Shown: in pieces, positions 40,031 through 59,520 of the stretch
How the letters are laid out: the number at the start of each line of letters is the position of its first letter
Position numbering within the stretch: position 1 is the stretch's first letter
Assembly: GCA_030604135.1 (NCBI GenBank)
Contig: JAUVWL010000007.1
Coordinates: 1 to 64,000 of the forward strand
Length of the DNA stretch: 64,000 nucleotides
Direction: 5' to 3'
From: Burkholderiales bacterium
Lineage (GTDB): Bacteria; Pseudomonadota; Gammaproteobacteria; Burkholderiales; Burkholderiaceae_C
Position numbers and translations under genes: made by a program
The notes under the pieces: model-generated
The model's database searches: none
The model's input: the letters and a program-made list of their open reading frames with translations, nothing else
Told to the model about the DNA's origin: nothing

Positions 40031-41184
40031 CCCTCCTTTTTCTTATTCAGTCGCTTGGCCACCTTGCCCAAGGCTGCCACGGCATCGTCGTCGGTAGAGT
40101 TCGAACCCAGCATGAGGACGGCATAAGCCTCGCCTTCCGCCTCCAGCGCCGCCCGCCGTTGCGCCGCGAACTGCTCATACTCACTCTGCGCATGGGCCAC
40201 CGCCTGCTTGTGCGACACCTTGCCGGCACCCACCAGCACCTGCCGGTCATTGAAGCTGAGGAAGGCGTCGAGCTTTTCGGCCCAGTCTTTCAGGAACACC
40301 TCTTTGCGGCGCGTGGCCTGGTCTTCGGCAAAGTCCAGCCACATGGTGACGATGCGGTTCAACTCGCTGATTTCCTGCTCGTTCAGGTAGTTCTTGGCCA
40401 CGCCCACGTCGGCCTTCTGCACCTGCCCTTTGCGGGTGGTGGTCAGGCCCATATGGGGCTGGGTGTGGTCGGCACGGCGGCGAATGATCTCGGCAGCCGT
40501 CTGGCCCGACACGGCGTAGTGCAGCTTGTTCTGGATGATGCGAAAGAAGGTAGTGGTCTCGGGCAGCGTGGGGGCGTAGTCAGCCGCCAGGGCGAAGATT
40601 TCGCGCACGCGCAGGTACATGCGGCGCTCGCTGGCGCGGATGTCGCGGATGCGCTCCAGCAACTCGCCGAAGCGGTCTGGCAATGCCGAGTCACCCACGG
40701 GTGGGTTCTTCAGGCGCTCATCGTCCATCACGAAGCCCTTGAGCAAGTATTCGCTCAGGTTCGCCGTGGCCCATTGGCGGAACTGGGTGCCTCGCGCCGA
40801 GCGCGCCCGGTAGCCGACGGCCAGGATGACGTCGAGGTTGTAGAAGCGCACATTGCGTCGGACGAGCCGACCACCCTCTTGGCGAACTTGTAAGCCGGAC
40901 TTACAAGTTGCCTCGGGGTCGGCTTCACCCTCGGCATAGATGGCTTTCACATGCTGGGTGACGTTCTGTGGCGTGGTCTGGAACAGCGTGGCGATTTCGG
41001 CCTGGCTGAGCCACAGCGAGCCGCCTTCGGCCCGCATTTCCACGCGGGTGATGCCATCGTCGGTGGTGTAGAGAACAAATTCGCCCTGGCTTTCGGCGCT
41101 GGCTGAAGCCTGCAACTCCACCGGCGTTTTCATCGCCTTGGCGGGCGTGCTGGCACGCTTGGTAGGCCTTGGCGCTTTACTCAT
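40027..41184 (-). CDS. rhuM: RhuM-family protein inserted between hsdM and hsdS
   Basis: Protein of 385 residues of the RhuM (virulence-associated) family. The start WLSQAEIATLFQTTPQNVTQHVKAIYAEGE looks like an HTH. RFYNLDVILAVGYRARSARGTQFRQWATANLSEYLLKGF is the family core, and the LHYAVSGQTAAEIIRRRADHT segment follows. RhuM was named in a Salmonella island, but many copies sit inside type I restriction operons, where a regulatory or accessory role is suspected. Overlaps of 8 bp with hsdM and 4 bp with hsdS show it belongs to the operon. A basic, Lys/Pro-rich extension precedes the domain. Confidence 0.93.
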   Translation of the reverse strand: MSKAPRPTKRASTPAKAMKTPVELQASASAESQGEFVLYTTDDGITRVEMRAEGGSLWLSQAEIATLFQTTPQNVTQHVKAIYAEGEADPEATCKSGLQVRQEGGRLVRRNVRFYNLDVILAVGYRARSARGTQFRQWATANLSEYLLKGFVMDDERLKNPPVGDSALPDRFGELLERIRDIRASERRMYLRVREIFALAADYAPTLPETTTFFRIIQNKLHYAVSGQTAAEIIRRRADHTQPHMGLTTTRKGQVQKADVGVAKNYLNEQEISELNRIVTMWLDFAEDQATRRKEVFLKDWAEKLDAFLSFNDRQVLVGAGKVSHKQAVAHAQSEYEQFAAQRRAALEAEGEAYAVLMLGSNSTDDDAVAALGKVAKRLNKKKEG

Positions 41185-42703
41185 AGCCCAGCTCCTTCAG
41201 GTAGACGGCCATCTGGGTTTCCAGGCTGGCCAGCTCGGCCTTGAGCTGTTCACGTTCCTTGCGCACGGCCATCAGGTCGATTTCGGCTTCTTCCTCAAAG
41301 GTGTCCACATAGCGCGGGATGTTCAGGTTGAAGTCGTTCTCGGCAATCTCGGCAGGCGTGGCGAGGTGGGCGTACTTCTCAACACCCTGCCGTGTGAAGG
41401 CAGTGTTCAGGATGCGCTGCAGGTCGGTTTCGCGCAGCAGGTTCTGGTTCTTGCCGGCTTCAAAGTCGCGGCTGGCGTCGATGAACAGCACCTTGTCGTC
41501 GGCCTTGTTCTTGCGGAACACCAGCACAGCGGCGGGGATGCCGGTGCCGTAGAACAGCTTTTCCGGCAGGCCAATCACCACGTCGAGCAGGTTCTCTTCG
41601 ATCAGCTTTTGGCGAATGCGGCCCTCGGCAGCGCCACGGAACAGCACGCCATGCGGCACGACCACCGCCATGCGGCCGGTGCCGGGTTTCATGGTCTCGA
41701 TCATGTGCAGGATGAAGGCGTAGTCGCCCTTGGTTCGCGGCGGCACGCCCCGGCGGAAGCGGCTGAACTTGTCGGCATCGGCGCCCTCGAAGCCCCACTT
41801 TTCCAGGCTGAACGGCGGGTTGGCCACCACGATGTCGAAGTGCTTGAGGCTGGCGGCACCGTCGAGCAGCTTGGGGTTGCGGATGGTGTCGCCCCACTCG
41901 ATGCGGTGGTTGTCCTCGCCGTGCAGGAACATGTTCATCTTGGCCAGCGCCCAGGTGCTGCCGATGGCTTCTTGACCATAGAGCGCGTACTTGCGGGAAC
42001 CGGTGTTCTCACGAATCAGGCGGCCGCACTTCATCAGCAGCGACCCGGAACCGCAGGTGGGGTCGCAGATTTCGTCGCCCTCCTGCGGCGCCATCAGGTG
42101 AGCCATCAGTGCGGAGACTTCGGGCGGGGTGTAGAACTCGCCCGCCTTCTTGCCACTGGTGGAGGCGAAGTTCTTGATGAGAAATTCGTAGGCGTTGCCG
42201 ATCACGTCGAGTTGGCCAACGCGGCTGGGGCGCAAGTCCAACTCGGGCTTGGCGAAGTCTTCCAGCAGGTGGCGCAGGATGTCGTTCTTCTGCTGCTCGT
42301 CGCCCAGCTTGTTGGAGTTGAAACTGATGTCCTGGAACACATCACGCAGTTTGGTGATGTTGGCCTCTTCGATGGCGTGCAAGGCCTTGTCGATGCGTTC
42401 GCCATTGCCGGGGCTGTGTCGCAGGGTGTGCAGGGCATAGAAGCTGGCGCTGGCAGGCAGCACGAAACGCTCGTTCTTGAGCATTTCCTCAATCAACTCG
42501 GGGTGGTCGCCGTACTGCTGCTTGTACGTGTCGTAGTGGTCTTGCCAGACATCGGACACGTACTTGAGGAAGAGCATGGTCAGGACGAAGTCCTTATAGA
42601 TGCTGGGGTCCACGGTGCCGCGAAAGGTGTCGCAGGCGGCCCAGACGGCGGCGTTGATGTCGTCCTGGCTGACAGAGGTGATTTGGGTGGCGGTGTCGTT
42701 CAT
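41177..42703 (-). CDS. hsdM: Type I DNA methylase subunit
   Basis: Methyltransferase subunit of 508 residues, normal length. An N-terminal helical domain (about 8-165) precedes GEFYTPPEV. DPTCGSG (214-220) binds SAM and NPPF (295-298) is the catalytic motif for adenine-N6 methylation. The C-terminal coiled region EREQLKAELASLETQMAVYLKELG mediates contact with HsdS. It sits 21 bp after the half-size HsdS and overlaps RhuM by 8 bp. Confidence 0.97.
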   Translation of the reverse strand: MNDTATQITSVSQDDINAAVWAACDTFRGTVDPSIYKDFVLTMLFLKYVSDVWQDHYDTYKQQYGDHPELIEEMLKNERFVLPASASFYALHTLRHSPGNGERIDKALHAIEEANITKLRDVFQDISFNSNKLGDEQQKNDILRHLLEDFAKPELDLRPSRVGQLDVIGNAYEFLIKNFASTSGKKAGEFYTPPEVSALMAHLMAPQEGDEICDPTCGSGSLLMKCGRLIRENTGSRKYALYGQEAIGSTWALAKMNMFLHGEDNHRIEWGDTIRNPKLLDGAASLKHFDIVVANPPFSLEKWGFEGADADKFSRFRRGVPPRTKGDYAFILHMIETMKPGTGRMAVVVPHGVLFRGAAEGRIRQKLIEENLLDVVIGLPEKLFYGTGIPAAVLVFRKNKADDKVLFIDASRDFEAGKNQNLLRETDLQRILNTAFTRQGVEKYAHLATPAEIAENDFNLNIPRYVDTFEEEAEIDLMAVRKEREQLKAELASLETQMAVYLKELGYE

Positions 42704-43521: not shown

Positions 43522-45363
43522 TCAGCCCTGCCGCGCCAACCACGCCCGCCAGCTCCCCAGCGCAGTGATCTCGGTCCCCCCCTCCACCCCAACCGCCTCG
43601 CACACAAACCCGCTCACCCACGCCCCATCGGCCAGCTTGACCTTGCCGATGCCCAGCGGGGCGGGGATGCCGTCGACGAAGCTGCCGAAGTGTTCGGCGG
43701 GCAGTTCCCAGACTTCCATGTCGATGGCGGCGCCGCCTTCGTTGACGCGCACCATGCCGGGCCGCTGGACCGGGCCGCCGGCGAGGGCGTAGAACTTGTA
43801 TTCGGGTGCGGACTGCACGGCGCCGAGCAGGCGCGCGCCGCGTTGGGTGAGTTGCCAGTTGAGCGGCAAACCGCTGAGGTGGGCGCCGCAGACGGCGACC
43901 TTGACGGTGCCGGCGGTGTTGCTGCCTTTGGGCAGCTCGGTGGTGGTGATGGCGGGGGTGTCGGCCAGCGTTGCGGCGGTGGCGCCGAGTGAGGGCGCGG
44001 CCTGTGCTCGGTGGAAGCGATCGGCCAGGCGCAGCAGGGGCACGTCCTTGAACGCGGGGGCGGCCAGGGTCACGCCCCAGGGCAGGCCTTGCGCGTCGCC
44101 GCTGGCCTGGAAGCCGGCGGGCACCGCGACGGCGGCGTAGTCCAGCAGGTTCATGAAGTTGGTGTAGTAGCCCAGGTTGCTGTTGAGGCGGATCGGGTCG
44201 GCCTGCATGTCGGCGATGCGGTAGATCGTTCCCGCCGTGGGCGTGAGCAGGCAGTCGATGTCCTTCCACACCGCGTCGCACACGCGCTTGAGCACCTTGA
44301 GGCGGTAGCTTGCGGCGAAGGCGTCGGCGGCGGTCTTGGCCTTACCGCCTTCGATGATGGTGCGCACGGGCGGGAACACGGCCTCGGGCTGGGCGTCGAT
44401 GAAGTCCTTGATGGCGACGTAGCGCTCGGCCACCCAGGGGCCTTCGTAGAGCAGGCGCGCGGCTTCGAGAAAGGGGGTGAGGTCCACTTCGACGGCGGTG
44501 CCGCCGAGGGCGTGCAGGCGCTCGATGCTCTGCGCGAACAGTTCGACGGCGGCCTCGTTGCCGAAGAAGTTGAGGTCCTGCGGGCGCGGCACGCCAAAGC
44601 GGAACGGGCCGGCCGAGAAATCCACACCAAAGGGCTTGGCGGCGCGGCTGAAGGCGTCGGTTTCGTCGGGCACCGCGGCCACAGCCAGCACGGCCTGCGC
44701 GTCGGCGGCGGTGAGGGCGAAGATGGACACGGTGTCCACCGACCGGCAGGCGGGCACCACGCCGGTGGCCGAGAGCAGGCCGATGCTGGGCTTGAGGCCG
44801 ATGAGGTTGTTGAAGCTGGCGGGCACGCGGCCGGAGCCGGCCGTGTCGGTGCCCAGCGAGAAGCTGACCCAGCCTTTTGCCACGCTCACGGCCGAGCCGC
44901 TGCTGGAGCCGCCCGAGACGAAGTCGGGGTTGAAGGCGTTGCGGCACGCGCCGTAGGGCGAGCGCGTGCCGTTGAGGCCGGTGGCGAACTGGTCGAGGTT
45001 GACCTTGCCCAGCGGCACGGCGCCGGCCGCAATGAGCTGCTGCACGAGGAAGGCGCTCTCCGTGGGCGTGTACGCGTATTCGGGGCAGCCCGCGGTGGTG
45101 GGGATGTGCGCGAGGTCGATGTTGTCCTTGATGGCGAAGGGCACACCGTACAGCGGCAGGCTGGCCGGGTCCACGCCGCCAGCACTTTCCAAACGGGCGA
45201 CGTAGGGCTCGATCTCGGCGTCGGTCAGGCGGTGGATGAAGGCGTTGTTCGCGTCGCTGGCGCAGCGGCGCATGGCCTCGGCGATGACGGCGCGCACCGG
45301 GGTGCCGGTGGCGTAGGCGGCGCGCAGGCTGGCGAGGTCGAAACTGAGGGTGCTGAGGTCCAT
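43522..45363 (-). CDS. atzF: Allophanate hydrolase
   Basis: Amidase of 613 residues that splits allophanate to ammonia and CO2, the final step of guanidine or urea carboxylation routes. The amidase-signature domain (about 25-440) contains the Lys of PFAIKDNID, GGSSSGSA with the cis-Ser, and the nucleophile Ser in GTDTAGSGRVPA. The C-terminal domain (about 480-613) is the allophanate-hydrolase-specific AtzF tail (TVAVCGAHLSG-type, YALAGGPVQRPGMV). It is the last gene of the riboswitch-led operon, 169 bp after the carboxylase. Confidence 0.95.
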   Translation of the reverse strand: MDLSTLSFDLASLRAAYATGTPVRAVIAEAMRRCASDANNAFIHRLTDAEIEPYVARLESAGGVDPASLPLYGVPFAIKDNIDLAHIPTTAGCPEYAYTPTESAFLVQQLIAAGAVPLGKVNLDQFATGLNGTRSPYGACRNAFNPDFVSGGSSSGSAVSVAKGWVSFSLGTDTAGSGRVPASFNNLIGLKPSIGLLSATGVVPACRSVDTVSIFALTAADAQAVLAVAAVPDETDAFSRAAKPFGVDFSAGPFRFGVPRPQDLNFFGNEAAVELFAQSIERLHALGGTAVEVDLTPFLEAARLLYEGPWVAERYVAIKDFIDAQPEAVFPPVRTIIEGGKAKTAADAFAASYRLKVLKRVCDAVWKDIDCLLTPTAGTIYRIADMQADPIRLNSNLGYYTNFMNLLDYAAVAVPAGFQASGDAQGLPWGVTLAAPAFKDVPLLRLADRFHRAQAAPSLGATAATLADTPAITTTELPKGSNTAGTVKVAVCGAHLSGLPLNWQLTQRGARLLGAVQSAPEYKFYALAGGPVQRPGMVRVNEGGAAIDMEVWELPAEHFGSFVDGIPAPLGIGKVKLADGAWVSGFVCEAVGVEGGTEITALGSWRAWLARQG

Positions 45364-45452
45364 CGGGGGCTCCGTGAAAAGGATCTGAATGTGTTTCGGT
45401 TGTCCATGGCGCCGGAGCGTCACCCGCAACGCGTGAAGCGGTCCCATCCAGG

Positions 45453-45531
45453 GGCACCGAGGAACCGGCTCTGCCGGGCCTCTGGTGCCGCCCCCATTGA
45501 GGGGGGTGACGCGAAGCGGCGCGGGGGGTGT
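45453..45531 (-). repeat. Dispersed intergenic repeat, copy 1 (post-stop)
   Basis: On the minus strand it begins 1 bp after the carboxylase stop: CCCCCCGCGCCGCTTCGCGTC, then a C-run, and a stem with outer arms GGCACC/GGTGCC around GGAACCGGC / GCCGGGCC. Copies 2 and 3 share the same order of blocks. Confidence 0.8.
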
Positions 45532-45532
45532 T

Positions 45533-48500
45533 TCATTCCACTAGCACCAGCACGTCCTGGCCGGCGGCCACGGGCGCGCCTTCGCGGCACATGAGGCGGT
45601 GCACGGTGGCGTCCTGTGGCGAGAGCACGTTGAATTCCATCTTCATGGACTCGACCACCAGCAGCACGTCGCCGGCGGCCACGCGCTGGCCTTCGCTGAC
45701 CAGCACCTTCCACACGCTGCCGGGCACGCTGCTGGCCAGCGGGCGGCCGCCGGGCGGCAGGTCCAGCTCGACGCTGGCGTCGGCCGCGGCCACGTCGGCG
45801 TCGCCCGCGTAGGCCAGTTGCCCGCTGGCGGCCCAGCGCTCGCGCTCGGCGTCGAAGGCGGCCTGCTGCTGCGCCTTGAAGGCGCCGATGCTGGCGGCGT
45901 TGTCGGCCAGGAAGCGGCGGTAGTCGCGCAGGCTGAAGGTCGTCTCTTCGACTTGCAGCGCGTAGCCGCCGTGCGGGAAGGCGGCGCGGATGCGCAGCAG
46001 CTCGTCCTGGTCCACCGGCACGAAGCGGATCTGGTCAAAGAAGCGCAGCAGCCAGGGCTGCTCGAACACCGAGCCCGGCTCGCCATGGCGCCAGCGGTTC
46101 CACATCTGCAGCGTGCGGCCGACGAACTGGTAGCCGCCGGGGCCTTCCATGCCGTAGACGCAGAGGTAGGCGCCGCCGATGCCGACGGCGTTCTCGGGCG
46201 TCCAGGTGCGCGCAGGGTTGTACTTGGTGGTCACCAGGCGGTGGCGCGGGTCCACCGGCGTGGCCACCGGTGCGCCCAGGTACACGTCGCCCAGGCCGAG
46301 CACCAGGTAGCTGGCGTCGAAGACGACCTTGAACACGTCGTCGATGCTGCCCAGCCCGTTGATGCGGCGGATGAACTCGATGTTGCTCGGGCACCAGGGC
46401 GCGTCGGGCCGCACCGATTGCATGTACTTCTCGATGGCCAGTTTCGTCTGCGGGTCGTCCCAGGAGAGCGGCAGGTGCACGATGCGGCTGGGCACCTGCA
46501 TGTCGTCGACGGCGGGCAGCGCGGCTTCGGCTTCGACCAGCACCTTCAGCAGCGCGGCGCGCGAGACCTTGGCGGGGTCGAAGTGCAGCTGCAGAGAACG
46601 GATGCCCGGCGTCATGTCGACGATGCCGGGCAGGGTGCCCGCCTCGATGCGCGAACGCAGCGCCTGCATCAGCACGTGCACGCGCAGGCGCAGTTCGATG
46701 TCGAGCACCAGCGGGCCGAACTCGACCAGCAGGTAACGGTCGCCGGCCTGGCGCACCACCATGGCGGGCACGGCCTCGTCTTCGCGCGCCGGGTCGGCCA
46801 GGACAATGGGCGTGGGGTGGGCGGTGACGTCGTCGCTTGGCTTGGCGGCCAGTGGCTGGCTGAGCGAGATGAGCGCGGCGTCGAGCATCGCGCTGCGGTC
46901 CAGCGCCTGGTCCAGCGAGAGGCGGTGGAAGCGCACCGTGTCGCCGGGGCGCAGCTGGCCGAGCTTCCAGAGTTCGGCGTCGACCACCACGGCCGGGCAG
47001 ACGAAGCCGCCGAGGCTGGGGCCGTCGGGGCCGAGGATGACCGGCATGTCGCCGGTGAAGTCGATGGCGCCAATGGCGTAGGCGTTGTCGTGGATGTTGG
47101 ACGGGTGCAGGCCGGCCTCGCCACCGTCGGGGCGCGCCCACTGTGGCCGGGGACCGATCAGGCGCACGCCGGTGCGGCTGGAGTTGTAGTGCACCTCCCA
47201 GTCGGTGGCGAAGAAGGTGGCCACGTCATCGGGTGTGAAGAAGTCGGGCGCGCCGTGCGGGCCGTAGAGCACGCCCACGTCCCAGTGGTGGTTGAAGGCG
47301 GGCACGGTGTCGGGGGATGCGCTCACGCCCGCCGTGCCGGCGCCGGGCGCGGCCAGGTGCAGCACGTCGCCGGTGCGCAGGTGGCGGCCGGCGTGGCCGC
47401 CGAACTGGCCGAGCGTGAAGGTGCTGCGGCTGCCCAGATACAGCGGCACGTCGAAGCCGCCGCCCACGGCCAGGCACAGGCGCGCGCCGCCCTCTGCACG
47501 GCCGATGGCGAGCACGCTGCCGGCGGCTACGCGGTGGCTCTGCCACATCTCCAGTGGCGCGCCGTCAAGTGTCACCTTCACCGGCGCGCCGGTCACGGCG
47601 ATCACCGCGTCGGCGTTGAAGCGCAGCGTGGGGCCGGAGAGCGTGATCTCCAGCGCGGCCGCGTCGTCGGCGTTGCCCACCAGGCGGTTGGCCATGCGGT
47701 GGGCGTAGGCGTCCATGGGGCCGCTGGGCGGCACGCCCACGTCCCAGTGACCGAGGCGCCCCGGCCAGTCCTGCACGCTGGTCTGCACGCCGGGCTCCAC
47801 CACTTCGACGGTCGCGGGACGGAAGTGGAAGCTGTTGAGAAAGCGCGTGACCTGCCGGCCTGTGCGGAACACCGGGTCGCGCACCACCTGGCGCAGGTAG
47901 CCCAGGTTGGTTTCGATGCCGGCCAGGCGCGTGGCGGCCAGCGCGGCCTCGAGCTTGTGCAGCGCCTGCTCGCGGTCGGGCGCAGTGACGATGAGCTTGG
48001 CCAGCATGGGGTCGTACCAGGCGGGCACCTCGGTGCCGCGCTCGACCCAGCCGTCCACGCGAGCATCGCTTGGGAAAGCCACCTCGGTCAGCAGGCCGGC
48101 GCTGGGCTGGAAGTTTTTCGCCGGGTCTTCGGCGTACAGCCGCACCTGGATGGACGCACCCTGCGGGGTGGGTGCCAGCGTGGCCAACGGCGGCAGATCA
48201 CCGGCGGCGAGTTGCACCATCCACGCGACCAGATCGACGCCAGTCACCTGCTCGGTCACGCCGTGTTCCACCTGCAGGCGGGTGTTGACTTCAAGGAAAT
48301 AGAACTGGCCGGTGGCGGCGTCGTAGACGAATTCCACCGTGCCGGCCGAGCGGTAGTTGACCGCCTGCGCCAGACGCACCGCGGTGGCGTGCAGTTCGCT
48401 GCGCTGCGCGTCGGTCAGGCCCGGCGCGGGCGTCTCTTCGATCACCTTCTGGTTGCGGCGTTGCACCGAGCAGTCGCGCTCGCCCAGCGCGAGCACCGTG

Positions 48501-49153
48501 CCCGCGCCGTCGCCGAAGACCTGCACCTCGATGTGGCGCGCCTGCTCGACGTACTTCTCCAGGAAGAGGCCGGCGTCTTTGAAGTTGGCGCTGGCCAGGC
48601 GCTGCACCGAGGCGAAGGCATCGCTGAGTTCGTCTTCGCTCCACACCAGGCGCATGCCGATGCCACCGCCGCCGGCCGTGCTCTTGAGCATGACCGGGTA
48701 GCCGATGCGCAGGGCCTCGGCGCGGGCCTGCGCGGCATCCTGCAGCAGACCGGTGCCGGGCAGCAGCGGCACGCCGCGCTGTTCGGCCAGGTCGCGTGCC
48801 GTGTGCTTGAGGCCGAAGGCGCGCATCTGATCGGGCGTGGGGCCGATGAAGGCGATGCCCGCGTCTTCGCAGGCCTGGGCAAAGCCCGGGTTTTCGGACA
48901 GGAAACCGTAGCCGGGGTGGATGGCCTGGGCGCCACAGTCTTTGGCAATCTGCAGGATGCGGTCGGCCCGGAGGTAACTCTCGGCCGCGGGCGCGGGGCC
49001 GAGCAAATAGGCCTCGTCGGCCTCGCGCACGTGGCGGGCCTGCGCGTCGGCTTCGGAATATACGGCCACGCTCTGCACGCCCAGCGCCTTGAGGGTGCGG
49101 ATGATGCGGCAGGCGATGGCGCCTCGGTTGGCGATCAGGACCTTGCGGAACAT
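45533..49153 (-). CDS. Biotin-dependent guanidine/urea carboxylase
   Basis: Multidomain enzyme of 1206 residues. Biotin carboxylase comes first (1-450: [21 protein letters not shown]-grasp [13 protein letters not shown]). The carboxyltransferase region follows, with the AHS2 and AHS1 domains (about 465-1040: [19 protein letters not shown] and [15 protein letters not shown]). The biotinyl domain ends the chain with Lys1171 in ESMKMEF. Genes of this type were long called urea carboxylase. Downstream of a guanidine-I riboswitch and with two DUF1989 partners, guanidine is the likely substrate, giving carboxyguanidine. The Asp/Asn residue that separates the two specificities was not located here. 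Confidence 0.9.
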
Positions 49154-49255
49154 GGGTTCTCCGGTGGCAGGCCGTCCTGCCGAGGCGATGACATCAGACG
49201 GGTCGTCCCGTCGTCAGATGGAAGAAACAGATGCGTGCACGGGCTGCTTCCAGCA

Positions 49256-49332
49256 CACACCGCGGAACCGGCTTCGCCGGGCCGCTGGTGTGGTCCCCCT
49301 GGGGGGAAGACGCGAAGCGGCGCAGGGGGGTG
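49256..49332 (-). repeat. Dispersed intergenic repeat, copy 2 (post-stop)
   Basis: It starts 1 bp after the stop of the second DUF1989 gene. CCCCCCTGCGCCGCTTCGCGTC is followed by a C-run/G-run stem and GGCCCGGCGAAGCCGGTTCC within CACACC/GGTGTG arms, aligned with copies 1 and 3. Confidence 0.8.
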
Positions 49333-49333
49333 C

Positions 49334-50011
49334 TCATGTCTGGTCCCAGACCAGCAGTTGAATGGGGGTGGGGTTGTAGGCGTTGCAGGGGTTGTTCAGC
49401 TGGGGGCAGTTGCTGATCAGCACCCACAGGTCCATCTCGGCGCGCATCTCCACGTACTTGCCCGGGCCGGACACGCCGTCGGCGAACTGGAGGTCGCCGC
49501 TGTCGGTGACCGGCACGTTCATGAAGAAGTTGATGTTGGGCACCAGGTCGCGCTTGGTCAGGCCGATGTCGGCGTGCTGCATGGCGACAAGGTAGTTGTC
49601 GCGGCAGTTGTGCATGAACTTCTTCTGCAGCGCGTAGCGCACGGTGTTGCTCTCGGCCGCGCAGGCGCCGCCCAGGGTGTCGTGGCGGCCGCAGGTGTCG
49701 GCCACGATGGTGAGCATGGGGCGGCCGTCGTTGCTGCGGATGACCGAGCCGGTGGTCAGGTAGATGCCGCCCTGGTGCACCATGGTGTCGATGGCGCTGT
49801 AGTGCTCGGCCAGGTCGTCGCGGTTGTAGAACAGCACGTCGGCGGCCTGGTTGCCCTCCAGGTCCACGATGCGCAGGGTCTGGCCCTTGTTGACCGCGAA
49901 CAGAATGGGCTCGCCCGGCGGGTGGCGCTGGTCTAGAACGGCCTGGGCCGGGTCGAGCGCACTCTCCTGGATGCGGATGTCGGTGGCCTGGTTTTCGGTG
50001 GTGGCGTTCAT
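49334..50011 (-). CDS. cgdB: DUF1989 protein, probable carboxyguanidine deiminase subunit
   Basis: One of two urea-carboxylase-associated (DUF1989) proteins in the operon, 225 residues. NKGQTLRIVDLEGNQAADVLFYN, GSVIRSNDGRPMLTIVADTCGRHD and the Cys/His-bearing ALQKKFMHNCRDNYL and DIGLTKRDLVPNINFFMNV segments are the family core. The paired proteins are known in guanidine-using bacteria as a heteromeric deiminase turning carboxyguanidine into allophanate. ATG 50011 has GGAGA upstream; a GTG 18 bp earlier is possible. The A/B naming is tentative. Confidence 0.82.
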   Translation of the reverse strand: MNATTENQATDIRIQESALDPAQAVLDQRHPPGEPILFAVNKGQTLRIVDLEGNQAADVLFYNRDDLAEHYSAIDTMVHQGGIYLTTGSVIRSNDGRPMLTIVADTCGRHDTLGGACAAESNTVRYALQKKFMHNCRDNYLVAMQHADIGLTKRDLVPNINFFMNVPVTDSGDLQFADGVSGPGKYVEMRAEMDLWVLISNCPQLNNPCNAYNPTPIQLLVWDQT

Positions 50012-50025
50012 GAAGGTCTCCGCGT

Positions 50026-50880
50026 TCACAGGTACAGAACATCCGAGTTGTGCAGGGCGCGCGCGTTCTCCGGGCGGAAGGCGCGGCAGGCGTCGTTGGC
50101 CGGTGCGGCTCCGCAGCGCCAGGCCAGCAGGCCCACCTTCTTCGGCGCGTAGACCGGGTTCGGGTCCAGCGCGTGCGGCGCGGTGCTGATGGCCAGGATT
50201 ACGTCCATGTCGAAGCGCAGCTCGACGTGGTCGCCGGCCCTGGCGTGGTCGGGCACGAACTGGAAGCGCCCCTGCGCGTCCACGCTGACCTTTGAAAACA
50301 GGTTGACTGGCGCAATCAGGTCACGCCGGGTCAGGCCGTACTTGCCGATCTCGATCAGCAACCCGTCCTTGCCGGAGCGGTACATGCCGTTGCGCGCGTC
50401 TTCGTAGCGGCGCTCGCCGTACCTGGCCGCCATGCGCTCGTTGTCCAGCAGGGCGCCCAGCGGGTCGTGCCAGCCCAGGCTGTCGGCAGTGACGCTGGCC
50501 AGGCTGCGGCCCATGTCACTCATCAGCACATGGCCGGCCCGGTAGTGCACGGTGTGCTGGGCCTTGAGGCTGTCGGGCATGTTGTAGCGCTCCAGCTTTT
50601 CCAGGGCCGAATAGAGCACCACGCTGACGTTGGGTCCGTCCTCCAGGGCCACGAAGCGGATGGCGCTGCCACGCGGCATGCGCCAACTCCAGTGGCCACC
50701 GCCGGGCACGATCTCGCTCCACATGGCGCGCGCGGTGTCCACACCGGCCAGCGCCGCCTGCGGAAAACGCTGCCACAGCGCGGGCGCGTCCACCGGGGCG
50801 GCCTGCGGCGGGTTGGCGGGCACCGGCACCTGCGGCTCGGTCCAGGGGGTGCTGGAGGTGGTGGGGGTGGTGTCGCTCAT
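50026..50880 (-). CDS. cgdA: DUF1989 protein, probable carboxyguanidine deiminase partner subunit
   Basis: Second DUF1989 protein, 284 residues, distinct in sequence from its neighbour but with the same core: GGGHWSWRMPRGSAIRFVAL, MSDMGRSLASVTADSLGWHDPLGA and YGLTRRDLIAPVNLFSKVSV. A Pro-rich N-terminal leader (1-30) precedes the domain. It lies 34 bp after the ATPase and 14 bp before the partner subunit. The deiminase role is inferred from established guanidine pathways and the riboswitch context. Confidence 0.82.
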   Translation of the reverse strand: MSDTTPTTSSTPWTEPQVPVPANPPQAAPVDAPALWQRFPQAALAGVDTARAMWSEIVPGGGHWSWRMPRGSAIRFVALEDGPNVSVVLYSALEKLERYNMPDSLKAQHTVHYRAGHVLMSDMGRSLASVTADSLGWHDPLGALLDNERMAARYGERRYEDARNGMYRSGKDGLLIEIGKYGLTRRDLIAPVNLFSKVSVDAQGRFQFVPDHARAGDHVELRFDMDVILAISTAPHALDPNPVYAPKKVGLLAWRCGAAPANDACRAFRPENARALHNSDVLYL

Positions 50881-50914
50881 GGGCGGTCTCCGTTGATCGT
50901 GGGGTCGGGCCAGG

Positions 50915-51772
<858 letters not shown>

Positions 51773-51835
51773 GGCTGTTCAGCCTTTCATGTCAGAGGTC
51801 AGCACAGGTGCGACGAGGGCGGCTGCACCCTCCAC

Positions 51836-51935
51836 ACGCACCGTGGAACCGGCTTTGCCGGGCCACAGGTGCGGTTCCCCCTCCAAGCCGAAGGCGCCAG
51901 AGAGGGGGGAAGACGCGAAGCGGCGCAGGGGGGTA
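51836..51935 (-). repeat. Dispersed intergenic repeat, copy 3 (post-stop, longest)
   Basis: It begins 1 bp after the permease stop. CCCCCCTGCGCCGCTTCGCG and TCTTCCCCCCTCTCTGGCGCC are followed by TTCGGCTTGGAGGGGGAACC and GGCCCGGCAAAGCCGGTTCC. The extra central stem is missing in the two shorter copies. Confidence 0.8.
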
Positions 51936-51936
51936 T

Positions 51937-52797
51937 TCACTTGATATACAGCCAGGGGAAGGCGCGGCGGTGCGCCAGGCGGAACAGCTGGTCCGTCACC
52001 AGGCCAATGAGACCGATGACGATGATGCCGGCGAAGATGGTGTCGGTCTGCAGGAAGCGCTGTGCCCGCAGGATGGCGTAGCCCAGGCCCGAGTTGGCGG
52101 CCACCAGCTCGGCCACCACCAGGTAGGTCCAGGCCCAGCCCATGGTGATGCGCAGCGTGTCCAGCAGGGCCGGCTTGGCGCTGGGGAAGATGACCTTCTC
52201 GATCAGCTCACGCCGGTTGGCCCCCATGGTCTGCGCCGCCTCGACCTGCGCGGCCGGCACGCGGCGCACGTCTTCGGCCACCATCAGCACCATCTGGAAG
52301 AAGGTGCCAATGAAGATGATGGCGATCTTCGAGCCCTCGCCAATGCCGATCCACAGCATCACCAGCGGAATGAAGGCCACCGCCGGCATGTAGCGGATGA
52401 AATCGGTCAGCGGTTCCAGCAGCGCCTGCACCGCCCGGTACGAGCCGATCAGCAGACCCAGCGGCAGCGCAATCACCGCCGACAGCAGAAAGCCCGCCAC
52501 CACCCGGTAGACGCTGATGCCCATGTCGCCCATCAGCCCGGTCTCGGTGGCCCAGGTCCAGGTCCTGTCCAGCACCTGCAGCGGCGCCGGCAGAAAGGTC
52601 GCGTCCATGCCGCCCCAGGCGGCCAGCACGGTCCACAACAACAGCGGCGTGACCAGGCCGGTCAGGGCCAGCACCCAGTAGGCCCGGCGCGAAATGGGCG
52701 CACGCACCGTCCACAGGTTGGAACGTCGCCGCGGCACGGCCGGTGCGCGGGCCACCGGCACAATGGCCTGGGCGGCCGGAGGAAGGGTCTGGGACAT
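51937..52797 (-). CDS. NitT/TauT-type ABC transporter permease
   Basis: Inner-membrane permease of 286 residues with six predicted helices. FIRYMPAVAFIPLVMLWIGIGEGSK and the EAA loop (VEAAQTMGANRRELIEKVIFPSAKPALL) are family hallmarks. The ATG has AGGAG 5 bp upstream and is the first start after the guanidine-I riboswitch. The binding-protein gene that usually comes first in such operons is absent here. Confidence 0.93.
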   Translation of the reverse strand: MSQTLPPAAQAIVPVARAPAVPRRRSNLWTVRAPISRRAYWVLALTGLVTPLLLWTVLAAWGGMDATFLPAPLQVLDRTWTWATETGLMGDMGISVYRVVAGFLLSAVIALPLGLLIGSYRAVQALLEPLTDFIRYMPAVAFIPLVMLWIGIGEGSKIAIIFIGTFFQMVLMVAEDVRRVPAAQVEAAQTMGANRRELIEKVIFPSAKPALLDTLRITMGWAWTYLVVAELVAANSGLGYAILRAQRFLQTDTIFAGIIVIGLIGLVTDQLFRLAHRRAFPWLYIK

Positions 52798-52811
52798 GCG
52801 GACTCCTGGAC

Positions 52812-52877
52812 GGGGACAAAAGGCGGAGAGGCTCGTGCGCATGCAACGAAGCGTCTCCCGGGCTTTTGTCCCTCCGT
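52812..52877 (-). promoter_or_regulatory. Riboswitch expression platform: competing hairpin
   Basis: On the minus strand the aptamer's 3' conserved segment GGGACAAAAGCCCGGGAGA can pair with the downstream TCTCCGCCTTTTGTCCC (10 bp plus 5 bp, 23-nt loop). Forming this stem would destroy the aptamer. No T-run follows the stem and the AGGAG site lies just outside it, so the mechanism is not a classic intrinsic terminator. Confidence 0.7.
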
Positions 52878-52966
52878 GGAGCCACGCGATGGTGGCCGAC
52901 TGCTCTCGGACCAGACAGCGCCGCGCTCTGCATGAATGCAGAAGCAGCGCCCGGAACCCTAGCGGT
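52850..52966 (-). ncRNA. Guanidine-I (ykkC) riboswitch aptamer
   Basis: The minus strand carries, in order, the conserved ykkC blocks CTAGGGTTCCG (52962-52952), a variable stem, GGTCCGAGAG (52912-52903), a second stem, and CACGGAGGGACAAAAGCCCG followed by GGAG (from 52878). Order, spacing and sequence match the guanidine-I class, which turns genes on when guanidinium binds. It lies about 55 nt upstream of the ABC permease of the guanidine operon. Confidence 0.93.
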
Positions 52967-53160
52967 CTTCAAGGCAAGCGGCGTGCAGGGCACGGCGCCT
53001 CTCTGGTCAGGGTGTTAGCAAGAGCGGTGCCAGTGTGGCGGGGGGTGTTGGGGGGTGGATGGCGGGGGGCATGCACCAGGATGGTGTGGGGCGCCCCAAG
53101 TGGGGGCGGCCAGTGGCCCCTCTGAACCTCGGCCAGCCATGTTGTCCATCTCGATCTGTG

Positions 53161-53227: not shown

Positions 53228-53500
53228 ATGCGTGATGCCGCCATCAATTTGCGCGCCCTGCCCGAACAACGGGACCTGATCGATCACGCCGCCAGCCTGC
53301 TGGGCAAGAACCGATCAGACTTCATGCTCGAAGCGGCATGCGAGCGGGCGCAGGCCGTGGTGCTGGACCAGGTCTTTTTCAGCTTGGACGCCGACAGATT
53401 CAAGCAGTTCACCGACCTGCTCGACGAGCCCGCCGGCCCCAACCCCGGGCTTGAACGCCTCATGGCAGTGAAAGCGCCCTGGAGCAAACGGTCGGCATGA
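53228..53500 (+). CDS. tacA: DUF1778 (TacA-type) antitoxin
   Basis: Ribbon-helix-helix antitoxin of 90 residues. AINLRALPEQRDLIDHAASLLGKNRSDFMLEAACERA is the DUF1778 core that binds DNA. The C-terminal half (about 45-90: QVFFSLDADRFKQFTDLLDEP) wraps and neutralises the acetyltransferase toxin. It overlaps the toxin start by 4 bp (ATGA), the usual antitoxin-first order. GGAGA lies upstream of the ATG. Confidence 0.92.
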   Translation: MRDAAINLRALPEQRDLIDHAASLLGKNRSDFMLEAACERAQAVVLDQVFFSLDADRFKQFTDLLDEPAGPNPGLERLMAVKAPWSKRSA

Positions 53501-53991
53501 GCCTTCAACTGAGTGAACCCGTTCCACTGGCAGCCAGCCATGTCCTGGGCCCCTTTGCATGTGGTGAAGCCAGTCTCGATGAATGGCTCAAGCGCCGGGC
53601 GCTGGCCAACCAGCTGAGCGGCGCCAGCCGCACGTTCGTCGTGGCCGATCAGGACAGTCGCGTCTACGGGTACTACGCCATGGCCGCCGGAGCGGTTGCA
53701 CACCAAGAGGCCACCAGCGGCGTGCGACGCAACATGCCCGACCCCGTTCCGGTGATGGTGCTGGCCCGTCTGGCCGTTGACCACCAGGCCCAAGGCCTCC
53801 AGCTGGGCGCCGCCTTGCTGCAGGACGCCGTCGCCCGCGCCGTGCACGTGTCGCAGAACGCCGGCGTCAGGGCACTGCTGGTCCACGCCCTGAACGAACG
53901 CGCAAAGGCGTTCTACGAGCACCACGGCTTTCAGCAGTCGCCGCTGCACCCGATGACACTGATGCTGCGGCTGGGCTCGGTCGGGGCCTGA
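53497..53991 (+). CDS. tacT: GNAT-family acetyltransferase toxin (TacT type)
   Basis: Toxin of 164 residues that acetylates aminoacyl-tRNA to block translation. The GNAT core has VMVLARLAVDHQAQGLQLGAALL (acetyl-CoA pyrophosphate loop, about 87-108) and AFYEHHGF, with the catalytic Tyr at 140, the same position as in Salmonella TacT. The N-terminal LGPFACGEASLDEWLKRRA is also typical. All key residues are intact, so the toxin should be active when free. Confidence 0.93.
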   Translation: MSLQLSEPVPLAASHVLGPFACGEASLDEWLKRRALANQLSGASRTFVVADQDSRVYGYYAMAAGAVAHQEATSGVRRNMPDPVPVMVLARLAVDHQAQGLQLGAALLQDAVARAVHVSQNAGVRALLVHALNERAKAFYEHHGFQQSPLHPMTLMLRLGSVGA

Positions 53992-54408
53992 TCAAATCAG
54001 CGTTGGTGGCTGGCTGTTAGAAGAGATGGTCGTCGGCTTTCCACCATGAACGACCCCTGATACCTAAAACTTGTGCGGCAGGTCAAGGCTGAGTTAAGTC
54101 CTTCGCCATTACAAATCCGAATGTCCGCTGCGACCAGAAACGGGCGCGCTATCCGATGCATGTTCAATGGCCCGATTTCTTCGGTACCCTGTAGATCAAA
54201 CAGAACGCGCTGGTAGGACAGATCACTGCGCACAATGCCCGGTAATGGCAAAACCACGAATCGCTGTCATGTTTGTGCGCTTTGTCCACTTTATGCGTTT
54301 ACGACACCTTCAGGAACGGTGTGTAGTTCTGGGTTGGGCCCGACACAGTCAAATGCGTTGGATTTGGCGTGTCCGTCCCGCCAGATAGCAACGCAGTGCG
54401 ATGCTGAG
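53992..54408. other. Non-coding stretch after the toxin-antitoxin pair
   Basis: I see no convincing gene. GC is lower than in flanking genes, and open frames (for example 86 codons on the minus strand) lack a ribosome site and family resemblance. The style suggests decayed foreign sequence, possibly the rest of an acquired segment that brought in tacAT, but no transposase, terminal repeat or attachment site is recognisable. Confidence 0.5.
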
Positions 54409-55731
54409 CTACACGATCAAGACTACTCGAAAGTCGTTCACATTGGTGTGGGTGGGCCCGGTGTACACCAGATCACCGAGCGGCTCGAAGAAGCCGTAGG
54501 CGTCGTTGCGCGCCAGGTGATCGGACAGTTTCAGGCCCAGCGCCGCGGCCCGCGCCAGCGTGTCGGGTGTGACCAACGCGCCGGCGTTGTCCTCCACCCC
54601 GTCAATGCCGTCGGTGTCGGCCGCCAGCGCCCAGACCTTCGGCTGGCCGTTCAGCGCCAGCGCCAGGCCCAGGCAGAATTCGCCGGCACGCCCGCCCCTG
54701 CCCCTGGCCTGTCCCTCGGCTCTCGGGCGCACCGTCACCGTGGTCTCGCCGCCGCTGAGAATCACACACGGTGTCTCGAAGCTGCTGCGGCCCAGCGCGG
54801 TCGAGCGCGCCAGTGCCGCATGCACCTTGCCGACCTCGCGCGATTCGCCCTCGACCTCGTCGCTCAGGATGTAGGCCCTCAGGCCCAGCGCAAGGGCGGC
54901 TTCGGCCGCGGCCTCCAGGCTTTGCTGCGGCGTGGCGATCAGGTGCGTCTCGCAGCGCGCCAGCCTCGGGTCGCCGGGTTTGGGGGTTTCCAGGGCGCCG
55001 TTGTCCAGTTCGGCGCGCACCGCAGCAGGCACCTCGATCCGGTAGCGGGCCAGAATGTCGAGCGCGTCCGCGCAGCTGCTGGCATCGGCCACGGTGGGGC
55101 CGCTGGCGATCACGCTCACGTCGTCACCGGGCACGTCACTGATGGTCAGCGTGACCACGCGCGCTGGGGCACAGGCCCCCGCCAGGCGCCCGCCCTTGAT
55201 GCGCGAGAGGTGCTTGCGCACGGTGTTCATCTCGCCGATGTGCGCGCCGCTTTCCAGCAGCTGGCGGTTGATGCGCTGCTTGTCGGCCAGCGTCAGTCCG
55301 TCGCAGGGCAGTGTCAGCAGCGCCGAGCCGCCGCCCGAGATCAGACATAGCACCAGATCGTCCGCCGTCAGGCCCTGGGTGAGCGCCAGGATGCGCTGAG
55401 CGGCGGCTAGTCCGGCCGCGTCGGGCACCGGGTGCGCGGCCTCGACGACCTCGATGCGCTGGGCCAGTCCGGCGGGCCGCGGCGGCGTGTGCCCGTAGCG
55501 CGTGACCACCAGGCCCGACAGCGGCGCGTCGGCTGGCCACAGGGCTTCGACCGCATGCGCCATCGCGCCACCGGCCTTGCCCGCGCCCAGCACCAGCGTG
55601 CGGCCACTCGGCGGCGGCGGCAGGTGCGCAGCCGTGTTGTGCAGCGGCAACGCACGTTGCACCGCCACGTCGTACAGGTGGCGCAGAAGGGCGCGAGGGT
55701 CGTCCAACGAGGCGGCGCAACCGGTGAGCAT
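54409..55731 (-). CDS. Glycerate 2-kinase (GckA/TtuD, MOFRL family)
   Basis: Enzyme of 440 residues that phosphorylates D-glycerate to 2-phosphoglycerate; genes of this family are often mislabelled hydroxypyruvate reductase (TtuD). The DUF4147 half (1-240) has LVLGAGKAGGAMAHAVE and CLISGGGSALLTLP. The MOFRL half ends AADTDGIDGVEDNAGA and TGPTHTNVNDFRV. It follows the split transketolase by 4 bp, so glycerate is a likely product of the sugar pathway in this cluster. Confidence 0.92.
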   Translation of the reverse strand: MLTGCAASLDDPRALLRHLYDVAVQRALPLHNTAAHLPPPPSGRTLVLGAGKAGGAMAHAVEALWPADAPLSGLVVTRYGHTPPRPAGLAQRIEVVEAAHPVPDAAGLAAAQRILALTQGLTADDLVLCLISGGGSALLTLPCDGLTLADKQRINRQLLESGAHIGEMNTVRKHLSRIKGGRLAGACAPARVVTLTISDVPGDDVSVIASGPTVADASSCADALDILARYRIEVPAAVRAELDNGALETPKPGDPRLARCETHLIATPQQSLEAAAEAALALGLRAYILSDEVEGESREVGKVHAALARSTALGRSSFETPCVILSGGETTVTVRPRAEGQARGRGGRAGEFCLGLALALNGQPKVWALAADTDGIDGVEDNAGALVTPDTLARAAALGLKLSDHLARNDAYGFFEPLGDLVYTGPTHTNVNDFRVVLIV

Positions 55732-55735
55732 CGTC

Positions 55736-56740: not shown

Positions 56741-56751
56741 CTTCGGGTTCC

Positions 56752-57591: not shown

Positions 57592-57690
57592 GAAATCTCC
57601 AGAAAGATGGCTGGGGAATGCTCGAAGCGCTGGTGGCAGCCACCAGGGGGACACACGCCCCAAGGCACTGCGAAGAGGGTTGGACAGATA

Positions 57691-58950: not shown

Positions 58951-59459
58951 ACCGCCCCCGATGACGTACCTGCGGGCGGCGTCGCCGCACGCAGGTTTTG
59001 CCAAGCCGACTGCAGAGCCAGCACACACAGCAGCGCCATGCCCACCATCACACAACCGTAGGTGACAGAGCCTGGGACCTGCAAGATGGGCGACTTTTCG
59101 TCGTGCACGATTTCCAGCAGCATGTAGGTCGCCTTGACCAGATAGCCGTACAGACCCGCGACCAGCAGCCAGGCCGCCACAGCCACCCGCCGCTGCCAGG
59201 CCGGCGAAAGTGCGCCCACCAGAAAGGTGGTGGTGATGTGAGCGCCCTTGGCCGCGGCCAGCACGATGCCCGACATCACCAGCCAGGGGAACATCAGTTC
59301 GGGTACTTCGCTGGCCCACTGCAGACTACTGCCGGTGCTGTATCGCAGCAGGGTATTGGCGGTGAGGATGAAGAAGATCACCGAGACGGTGATCCAGAGC
59401 ACGACCTTGCAGATGGCGCACACCAGCCGCTCCAGCCAGCCCGTTTCGGCTTGGGACAT
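58947..59459 (-). CDS. TRAP transporter small membrane subunit (DctQ type)
   Basis: Membrane protein of 170 residues with four predicted helices. ANTLLRYSTGSSLQWASEVPELMFPWLVMSGIVLAAAKGAHI is the DctQ signature, including the WxxE-type and GAH motifs. It bridges the receptor-bound solute and the large subunit. Located 61 bp after the receptor gene. Confidence 0.93.
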   Translation of the reverse strand: MSQAETGWLERLVCAICKVVLWITVSVIFFILTANTLLRYSTGSSLQWASEVPELMFPWLVMSGIVLAAAKGAHITTTFLVGALSPAWQRRVAVAAWLLVAGLYGYLVKATYMLLEIVHDEKSPILQVPGSVTYGCVMVGMALLCVLALQSAWQNLRAATPPAGTSSGAV

Positions 59460-59520
59460 ATCGGTCTCCAGAAGGAACCCGACCCCAGCCAGGATCGGGT
59501 TGCTGACAGACAGGACAGCA

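What the first reader, a model, noticed from the sequence alone, without database searches (positions are those of the whole stretch)
43522..52966. Riboswitch-led guanidine degradation operon where genes look like urea carboxylase
A guanidine-I aptamer precedes permease, ATPase, two DUF1989 proteins, the biotin carboxylase and AtzF on one strand. Such genes are often labelled urea metabolism. Established work on guanidine carboxylase and carboxyguanidine deiminase makes guanidine the more likely substrate, so the operon predicts growth on guanidine as a nitrogen source.
Basis: partly seen in the sequence, partly recalled or inferred. Interest (0 to 1): 0.72.

Follow-up and report, generated by a model that had tools for sequence, protein, structure and literature searches.

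The report
Guanidine-use operon with missing half nearby
This bacterium carries a known kind of gene set for using guanidine, with RNA sensors for guanidine in front of it, and 22 kb away a second guanidine-sensor transcript, found in many relatives, holds the missing uptake protein plus enzymes that look able to free guanidine from a larger molecule such as creatinine.

Summary
A Guanidine-I aptamer (82.7 bits) leads permease, ATPase, two DUF1989 proteins (CgdA/B), a biotin carboxylase and AtzF on the minus strand. The carboxylase has Asp698 where yeast urea amidolyase has Asn1330, so guanidine, not urea, is the likely substrate. This Gd-I + Gd-II layout is published for other bacteria, so the operon alone is a new member of a known kind.

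The operon has no substrate-binding protein. An SBP gene lies 22 kb away under a second Guanidine-I aptamer, at the head of a tight nine-gene run: SBP, membrane desaturase, two SDRs, EamA transporter, creatininase-like and biuret-hydrolase-like enzymes, an unknown, an MBL hydrolase. In 67 genomes of the genus the desaturase occurs in exactly the 32 with this SBP. Outside the genus, 19 of 28 desaturase loci carry a Guanidine-I aptamer. My six paper searches found no description of this cluster.

Best reading: the window operon is the lower half of a guanidine-regulated pathway whose upper half may import and oxidise a substituted guanidine, perhaps creatinine. The lower half is well supported; the upper substrate is inference.

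The parts
52853..52973 (-). Guanidine-I riboswitch aptamer (RF00442), leader of the operon
   Evidence: cmscan 82.7 bits, gathering 63
52798..52852 (-). Leader between aptamer and first gene; CTTTTGTCCC (10 nt) is complementary to the conserved GGGACAAAAG of the aptamer (possible anti-aptamer stem)
   Evidence: 10-nt match, 0 of 100 shuffles as long; MFE forms the stem; no terminator-like site with a loop of 3-8; over 32 leaders SD occlusion is no stronger than in shuffled controls
51937..52797 (-). ABC transporter permease (BPD_transp_1)
   Evidence: Pfam/NCBIfam, start
50915..51772 (-). ABC transporter ATPase
   Evidence: Pfam/NCBIfam
50026..50880 (-). CgdA-type DUF1989 protein, UAAP1
   Evidence: TIGR03425 324.8 bits, cut-off 205.95; PF09347
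49334..50011 (-). CgdB-type DUF1989 protein, UAAP2
   Evidence: TIGR03424 333.4 bits, cut-off 284.7; PF09347
49167..49214 (-). Guanidine-II riboswitch aptamer (RF01068), two ACGR hairpins, 13 nt before the carboxylase start
   Evidence: cmscan 36.2 bits, gathering 32; only match in the own-genome search; hairpin pair with varying, pairing stems in 45 of 81 loci
45533..49153 (-). Guanidine carboxylase (named urea carboxylase by NCBIfam)
   Evidence: TIGR02712 1896.6 bits; 3va7/5i8i best PDB matches
47060..47062 (-). Codon of Asp698, aligned with Asn1330 of K. lactis urea amidolyase
   Evidence: alignment; Asp in 82 of 82 sequences; Asn in L204
43522..45363 (-). Allophanate hydrolase AtzF
   Evidence: TIGR02713 788.2 bits, cut-off 511.05; PF21986 C-terminal domain; 4gyr match
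49301..49336 (.). Dispersed GC-rich repeat in the gap before Guanidine-II (further copies 51904-51939, 45500-45535)
   Evidence: 24 copies of a 25-base core with up to 2 mismatches in the genome, 0 for the reversed control

Best explanation
The window operon is a guanidine assimilation operon of the carboxylase route: ABC permease and ATPase for import, guanidine carboxylase (guanidine + bicarbonate + ATP to carboxyguanidine), CgdA/B (carboxyguanidine to allophanate + ammonia), AtzF (allophanate to 2 ammonia + CO2). A Guanidine-I aptamer leads the whole transcript and an internal Guanidine-II aptamer adds a second gate before the carboxylase. It works together with a second transcript 22 kb away (contig C28 74905-67214, minus strand) under its own Guanidine-I aptamer, which supplies the missing substrate-binding protein and a set of oxygenase, dehydrogenase and amidohydrolase genes. 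Shown here by sequence: the two aptamer classes, gene content, the Asp residue, the two-transcript layout and its conservation. From established work on these families: the enzyme steps. Inferred: riboswitch action in this strain, joint use of the distant SBP with this permease/ATPase, one transcript for the nine genes, and their role in making guanidine from a larger compound.
For: Guanidine-I and Guanidine-II aptamers above Rfam thresholds. Asp at the site where urea-type enzymes have Asn; the one Asn relative sits with urtABCDE and shows no UAAP gene or riboswitch in 15.6 kb. Gd-I and the carboxylase occur in the same 35 of 67 genomes of the genus. The SBP occurs in 32 of those 35, with a Gd-I just upstream in 31 of 32 (tables compared by eye; in G232 the SBP is cut by a contig end). 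In named loci L017, L019 and L042 the desaturase-to-hydrolase run lies directly upstream of the operon on the same strand (the fetched stretch starts inside the desaturase, so their SBP is not seen). A urease alpha subunit gene lies elsewhere in the genome, so a urea carboxylase would be redundant. Published Gd-I + Gd-II carboxylase operons, with proteome induction by guanidine: PMC12508155 (abstract and passages), PMC12186494 (passages).
Against: No expression, binding or growth data. Gd-II was not found before the carboxylase in 6 of 35 carboxylase-bearing genomes of the genus (the search used stricter filters that lose weak matches) nor, by a hairpin search, in 5 of the 25 loci that I grouped as Hydrogenophaga, so it is not essential. 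Its score here is only 4 bits above threshold. The Gd-I leader shows no terminator-like site and over 32 leaders the predicted Shine-Dalgarno masking is no stronger than in shuffled leaders (0.20 against 0.19; for our own leader 0.20 against 0.31, but 0.06 when the platform is folded alone), so the output mechanism of Gd-I is open. That the distant SBP serves this permease/ATPase is inference from the absence of another in the operon.
Confidence: 0.85

Rival explanations
1. An extension of the best explanation: the second Guanidine-I transcript and the window operon form one pathway for a substituted guanidine. The SBP imports the compound through the window's permease/ATPase; the membrane desaturase-like oxygenase hydroxylates it next to the guanidine nitrogen; SDRs oxidise; the creatininase-like enzyme opens a cyclic amide; the biuret/guanylurea-hydrolase-like enzyme cuts an acyl-guanidine; guanidine (or methylguanidine) enters the window operon. 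Creatinine is the best single candidate (creatinine, creatol, oxidised cyclic intermediate, acyl-guanidine, methylguanidine).
For: Desaturase (E 1e-30 or better) present in exactly the 32 of 67 genus genomes that have the SBP and in none of the other 35, next to the SBP in 30 of 30 SBP loci examined, also where the pair lies 1.75-2 Mb from the operon (G214, G114). Similar clusters in other families of the order: Gd-I above threshold at 19 of 28 non-genus desaturase loci, a creatininase-like gene at 50% identity or more in 18 of 35 regions examined. In Sideroxydans-type loci (L060, L064, L065) the SBP-desaturase set lies behind AtzF of the carboxylase operon. The 32 SBPs followed by the desaturase fall in one clade (support 0.984) that holds none of the 34 followed by the permease; two genomes (L249, L253) carry both kinds on divergent Gd-I transcripts. 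Creatininase 355.3 bits, cut-off 235. Guanylurea hydrolase is of the same superfamily as the cluster's IHL enzyme (PMC9800807, passages). Creatinine to creatol to methylguanidine is known oxidative chemistry (PMC3775425, abstract and passages).
Against: No substrate shown for any of the nine proteins. The residue aligned with Trp174 of P. putida creatininase is Phe/Tyr and the next Asp is Ala in 20 of 21 distinct copies (one search lists 22 rows, ours twice), so creatinine itself may not fit. The BiuH model is not reached (250.4 against 370). Only some clusters have a second desaturase for a demethylation step; ours has one. No electron donor protein seen in the cluster. No creatininase-like gene in L060, L064 or L065, and L061 (Gallionella) has the SBP and EamA gene behind the carboxylase operon without a desaturase. 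9 of 28 non-genus desaturase loci show no Gd-I.
Confidence: 0.4
2. The desaturase and its neighbours are a guanidine stress response: membrane remodelling and export (EamA) in cells exposed to a chaotrope, with the SBP simply a guanidine SBP that lies away from its permease.
For: PF00487 is named for fatty acid desaturases (117.8 bits); an EamA transporter is in the run; no other SBP in the operon.
Against: Two amidohydrolase-type enzymes, two SDRs and an MBL hydrolase fit catabolism better; 28-37% identity of permease-followed SBPs to ours and a separate clade argue against simple relocation; two genomes with the cluster also keep a permease-followed SBP (L249, L253).
Confidence: 0.2
3. The enzyme is a true urea carboxylase and the operon is for urea.
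For: NCBIfam names it urea carboxylase.
Against: Asp698, UAAP genes, two guanidine riboswitch classes, a urease gene elsewhere.
Confidence: 0.03

Closest known systems
Gd-I + internal Gd-II guanidine carboxylase operons of Raoultella terrigena, Klebsiella michiganensis, Erwinia rhapontici (PMC12186494, passages) and Vreelandella boliviensis (PMC12508155, abstract and passages)
   Same: Gd-I leader, importer genes, carboxyguanidine deiminase genes, Gd-II before the carboxylase, allophanate hydrolase
   Different: V. boliviensis carries the SBP in the operon (figure legend); here the SBP is on a second Gd-I-led run with eight other genes
mgdH/mgdL methylguanidine demethylation genes in the V. 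boliviensis operon (PMC12508155)
   Same: Extra oxidative genes that make guanidine from a substituted guanidine inside a guanidine riboswitch regulon
   Different: There a 2-oxoglutarate dioxygenase and a lyase; here a membrane desaturase-like protein, SDRs, creatininase-like and IHL enzymes; substrate unknown
Creatininase of Pseudomonas putida type (1j2t) and TIGR04448
   Same: EQHG, the aligned Asp, NGHYEN, YWDF and the EH after the flap are kept; above the NCBIfam cut-off
   Different: Trp174-Asp175 replaced by Phe/Tyr-Ala in 20 of 21 distinct cluster copies
Biuret hydrolase and guanylurea hydrolase (isochorismatase-like hydrolases)
   Same: Best PDB match 6xjm, 218.2 bits; same superfamily (PF00857)
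   Different: Below the BiuH equivalog cut-off; no sequence comparison with guanylurea hydrolase was run here

Membership tests
Guanidine-I riboswitch (RF00442) | Match above Rfam gathering score over the full model | tested here: met
   82.7 bits, positions 1-107 of 107
Guanidine-I riboswitch (RF00442) | Guanidine binding and control of the downstream gene | not testable with these tools
   needs in-line probing and reporter assays
Guanidine-II riboswitch (RF01068) | Two ACGR-loop hairpins above gathering score, before a guanidine-related gene | tested here: met
   36.2 bits against 32; hairpin pair in 45 of 81 loci, 0 of 1620 shuffles
Guanidine carboxylase | Biotin carboxylase + CT_A_B/CT_C_D + biotinyl domains of the urea carboxylase family | tested here: met
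Guanidine carboxylase | Asp instead of Asn at the KlUA Asn1330 site | tested here: met
   the Asp/Asn rule from PMC12186494 (passage)
Guanidine carboxylase | Kinetic preference for guanidine | not testable with these tools
   no assay
Urea carboxylase / urea amidolyase (urea-specific) | Asn at the discriminating site, no DUF1989 partners | tested here: not met
   Asp698; UAAP1 and UAAP2 adjacent
Carboxyguanidine deiminase CgdAB | UAAP1 and UAAP2 pair above NCBIfam cut-offs next to the carboxylase | tested here: met
   324.8 and 333.4 bits
Dual-riboswitch guanidine carboxylase operon | Gd-I leader and Gd-II immediately before the carboxylase | tested here: met
Dual-riboswitch guanidine carboxylase operon | Substrate-binding protein within the operon (feature of V. 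boliviensis; whether it defines the kind is open) | tested here: not met
   SBP at C28 73871-74905 under another Gd-I
Creatininase (gene in the second transcript) | Score above TIGR04448 cut-off | tested here: met
   355.3 against 235
Creatininase (gene in the second transcript) | Trp174 flap residue of the P. putida enzyme | tested here: not met
   Phe here; Phe/Tyr in 20 of 21 distinct copies; that Trp174 matters for creatinine is recalled
Biuret hydrolase (gene in the second transcript) | Score above NF050097 cut-off | tested here: not met
   250.4 against 370
Membrane fatty acid desaturase family PF00487 | Three histidine boxes and Pfam score above cut-off | tested here: met
   117.8 against 29.7; H59, E60, H63, H98, H101, H102, H257, H260, H261 invariant in 37 sequences

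The most novel reading that the evidence does not exclude
Guanidine-I riboswitches in many Burkholderiales control a hitherto undescribed oxidative pathway (SBP, membrane diiron oxygenase, SDRs, creatininase-like and guanylurea-hydrolase-like amidohydrolases) that frees guanidine or methylguanidine from a substituted or cyclic guanidine, creatinine being the leading candidate; the window operon is its lower half and free guanidine is mainly an intracellular intermediate and inducer.
Probability: 0.38. Interest if true: 0.82.

Novelty: new variant of a known kind. Interest (0 to 1): 0.56.

Why it matters
The operon itself is one more case where genes labelled urea metabolism are guanidine genes. 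The larger point is the second Guanidine-I-led run: it names a conserved gene set tied to guanidine sensing for which I found no experimental report. PMC12508155 states that natural sources of methylguanidine are elusive and that the authors know of no experimental evidence for enzymatic production (passage). If this cluster makes guanidine or methylguanidine from creatinine or a like compound, it would say where guanidine sensed by these riboswitches can come from, and the question can be tested with single gene deletions and growth assays.

Tried and rejected
Shine-Dalgarno masking as the output of the Gd-I leader: a first fold with hard constraints gave energies of 0.0 and was discarded; a second test with shuffled leaders showed no excess masking for 32 leaders with a CCTCTC-type platform (0.20 against 0.19; below control in 16 of 32) and a modest one for 30 SBP leaders (0.01 against 0.08; below control in 26 of 30). 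Anti-aptamer complementarity: 10 nt in our leader with 0 of 100 shuffles as long, but only 25 of 95 leaders had p of 0.05 or less, so it is not general.

A first read-out of the Asp/Asn site by fuzzy text search gave false strings such as GAPDFFTD and seemed to show variation; the alignment showed Asp in 82 of 82.

The desaturase homologue of Gloeothece PCC 7822 (the only plasmid-collection hit) lies with an ectoine synthase and a halogenase; no guanidine gene is annotated in the 19-kb stretch: no help on function. Structure: the AlphaFold2 model of the desaturase is confident (pLDDT 91.5) but Foldseek finds no PDB match at E 0.001 or better; best are two chains of chloroplast motor complexes (E 0.0036 and 0.017, TM 0.6) and AlkB at E 0.4. 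It supports a desaturase/AlkB-like fold at most, not a substrate.

Papers: PMC12452182 (passages) covers T-box plus guanidine pairs, not this layout. Sinn 2021 and Schneider 2020 are not held, so the cluster could be mentioned there or in supplements. My statement that I found no report rests, open PMC papers only: 65 listed 1 paper, 66 listed 2, 76 listed 8 (passages read in three: PMC12186494, PMC11410670, PMC11018352; five not opened), 97 none, 98 one (PMC12508155), 122 showed 10 of 394.
Full report
1. The observation. The window is contig C28:1-64000 of a 3.98-Mb genome. Rfam gives two hits in 64 kb: Guanidine-I at 52973-52853 (-), 82.7 bits, and Guanidine-II at 49214-49167 (-), 36.2 bits. 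Below the Gd-I aptamer, on the minus strand, come permease, ATPase, two DUF1989 proteins, the 1206-residue biotin carboxylase and AtzF (final coordinates and gaps: 164, 34, 14, 180 and 169 nt).

2. Guanidine or urea. The carboxylase is in the urea carboxylase family (TIGR02712). Aligned to K. lactis urea amidolyase (3va7, 5i8i), GAIDFTGD faces GAINFTGD, so Asp698 stands where yeast has Asn1330. PMC12186494 (passages read) states the rule: aspartate in guanidine, asparagine in urea carboxylases. 82 of 82 sequences from 80 relatives (one gave two copies) and our own have Asp. Of eight plasmid-borne relatives fetched, one (L205) was frame-broken and is dropped; six have Asp and UAAP genes, and one, on an Enterobacter plasmid, has Asn, urtABCDE beside it and no UAAP gene in the 15.6 kb fetched. 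Rfam finds Gd-I in five of those six Asp loci (not in Asticcacaulis L207) and none in the Asn locus. Our genome also has a urease alpha subunit gene. The segments of AtzF that I recall as active-site ones are kept in its alignment to 4gyr.

3. The internal Guanidine-II aptamer. It is the only match in the own-genome search and ends 13 nt before the carboxylase start. In 81 loci (80 relatives and ours) a pair of ACGR hairpins lies within 120 nt upstream of the carboxylase in 45, against 0 of 1620 shuffles; stem positions vary with pairing kept (for P1 pair 3: GC 28, AT 11, CG 5, GT 1) (the ACGR loops and five pairs were required by the search). Of 25 loci that I grouped as Hydrogenophaga (ours and 24 relatives, three of which, L018, L021 and L083, are not so titled) five lack the pair: in L018, L019 and L042 the two genes join with no room for it, L033 has other sequence, L017 keeps one strong hairpin. 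In 67 genomes of the genus, 29 of the 35 with the carboxylase have a Gd-II next to it; two more (G211, G223) have one without the carboxylase (weak matches may be lost). The Gd-I plus Gd-II layout is published for Raoultella, Klebsiella, Erwinia and Vreelandella, so it is not new.

4. The missing part. The operon has no substrate-binding protein. The second Gd-I of the genome (C28:74957-75057, 82.9 bits) leads an SBP of the NMT1/SsuA type (C28:73871-74905). The SBP is followed, on the same strand, by a PF00487 membrane desaturase-like protein, two SDRs, an EamA transporter, a creatininase (TIGR04448, 355.3 bits against 235), an isochorismatase-type hydrolase (best PDB match biuret hydrolase 6xjm), a protein without a family hit, and an MBL hydrolase; gaps are 79, 120, -4, -4, 12, -4, 21 and -4 nt. 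That this is one transcript is inference from spacing.

5. Conservation in the genus. Four relatives at 95-96% carboxylase identity are titled Hydrogenophaga, so I take the genus as Hydrogenophaga. The SBP is in 32 of these; the desaturase (E 1e-30 or better) is in exactly the same 32 and in none of the other 35. Comparing the tables by eye, a Gd-I lies just upstream of the SBP in 31 of 32; in G232 the SBP is cut by a contig end. In the 30 SBP loci issued the desaturase is beside the SBP in 30, also in G114 and G214, where the pair is about 2 Mb (G114) or 1.75 Mb (G214) from the operon. In named loci L017, L019 and L042 the run desaturase to MBL (no MBL hit in L017) sits upstream of the operon's own Gd-I, same strand; the fetched stretches begin inside the desaturase, so their SBP is not seen. 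In our genome about 14 kb of other genes lie between.

6. Conservation beyond the genus. In 399 genomes of the order, 31 (29 outside the genus) have a desaturase at E 1e-30 or better. Of the 28 non-genus loci that issued (one per genome, G560 without), 19 carry a Gd-I above threshold (18 of 20, L222); none in L223 (SBP at a contig end), L238, L239, L241-L246. I fetched 36 regions and examined 35 of them, L222 left out, for gene order. The layout Gd-I, SBP, desaturase, SDR, SDR, EamA, creatininase, isochorismatase recurs, in whole or part; a creatininase-like gene at 50% identity or more is in 18 of 35. In Sideroxydans-type loci (L060, L064, L065) SBP and desaturase lie behind AtzF of the carboxylase operon, without a creatininase-like gene; in Gallionella L061 the SBP and EamA gene are there but no desaturase; in Methylotenera L085 a desaturase follows AtzF. 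In L249 and L253 two divergent Gd-I aptamers drive the cluster one way and an SBP-permease-ATPase-CgdAB-carboxylase operon the other.

7. Two kinds of SBP. In a tree of 83 SBPs (82 from fetched loci and ours) the 32 followed by the desaturase lie in one clade (support 0.984, 39 tips, the other seven followed by neither); the 34 followed by a permease lie outside, at 28-37% identity to ours against 49-88% for the desaturase-linked ones. I infer that our operon's permease and ATPase work with an SBP of another ligand range than that of the classical operons.

8. What the second transcript may do. Oxygenase, dehydrogenases, cyclic-amide hydrolase and an amidase of the superfamily of guanylurea and biuret hydrolases (PMC9800807, passages), under a sensor of free guanidine and in lock-step with the SBP, suggest release of guanidine from a substituted guanidine. 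Creatinine fits chemically: oxidation to creatol and on to methylguanidine is known (PMC3775425, abstract and passages); the further intermediates are recalled. Against creatinine as such: the Trp174-Asp175 pair of P. putida creatininase is Phe/Tyr-Ala in 20 of 21 distinct copies, ours has a single desaturase, and no electron donor is seen. The model of the desaturase is confident but says only desaturase/AlkB-like. In V. boliviensis the analogous job, methylguanidine demethylation, is done by enzymes of other kinds.

9. Regulation. The Gd-I leader of the operon holds a 10-nt complement to the conserved aptamer strand, which would exclude the aptamer when paired; no terminator-like site was found, the scan being limited to loops of 3-8, and predicted Shine-Dalgarno masking does not exceed shuffled controls over 32 leaders. 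How Gd-I acts here is undecided. Gd-II as a translational switch is from the literature.

10. Verdict. The finding is real and its main point, guanidine instead of urea, stands. As an operon it is a new member of a known kind. Taken with the second Gd-I-led run it is a new variant: a split guanidine regulon with two Gd-I leaders, one internal Gd-II and an upstream gene set for which I found no report. Searches for prior reports: (open PMC papers only, extent given in Tried and rejected; PMC12625717, passages, notes a creatininase-like gene near biuH in an archaeal MAG; the passages seen name no riboswitch there).

Noticed in passing
window 45500-45535, 49301-49336, 51904-51939: A dispersed GC-rich repeat sits in three of the five gaps of the operon; a 25-base core occurs 24 times in the genome with up to 2 mismatches, 0 for the reversed control.
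   Followed up: partly
window 38786-42703 (-): Type I restriction genes (specificity subunit 38786-40030, HsdM 41177-42703) with a RhuM-family gene between (40027-41184) just downstream of the operon.
   Followed up: no
window 53497-64000 and on to contig 67200: About 14 kb between the two guanidine gene runs hold a GNAT protein, a MOFRL-type gene, transketolase parts, a TRAP transporter, an SDR and a LysR regulator; in L019 and L042 the two runs are only about 0.6 kb apart.
   Followed up: partly
L047, L050, L054, L057, L058, L066 upstream of the carboxylase: Gd-II-like hairpin pairs in these Thiobacillus/Hydrogenophilales-type loci have an ACGC loop in one hairpin in place of ACGR; possible variant of the riboswitch.
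   Followed up: no
genomes G211 and G223 (same genus), G212:C3:171722: Gd-II hits away from any carboxylase match, gene under control not looked at.
   Followed up: no
L263:15692-17857: A PAS-GGDEF-EAL protein lies within the Gd-I-led cluster of an order relative, between the MBL hydrolase and the protein without family.
   Followed up: no
L250, L252, L253, L259, L266, L272: Some clusters outside the genus carry a second desaturase, and L250, L252, L253 and L259 also a second SBP-like gene, within the same run.
   Followed up: no
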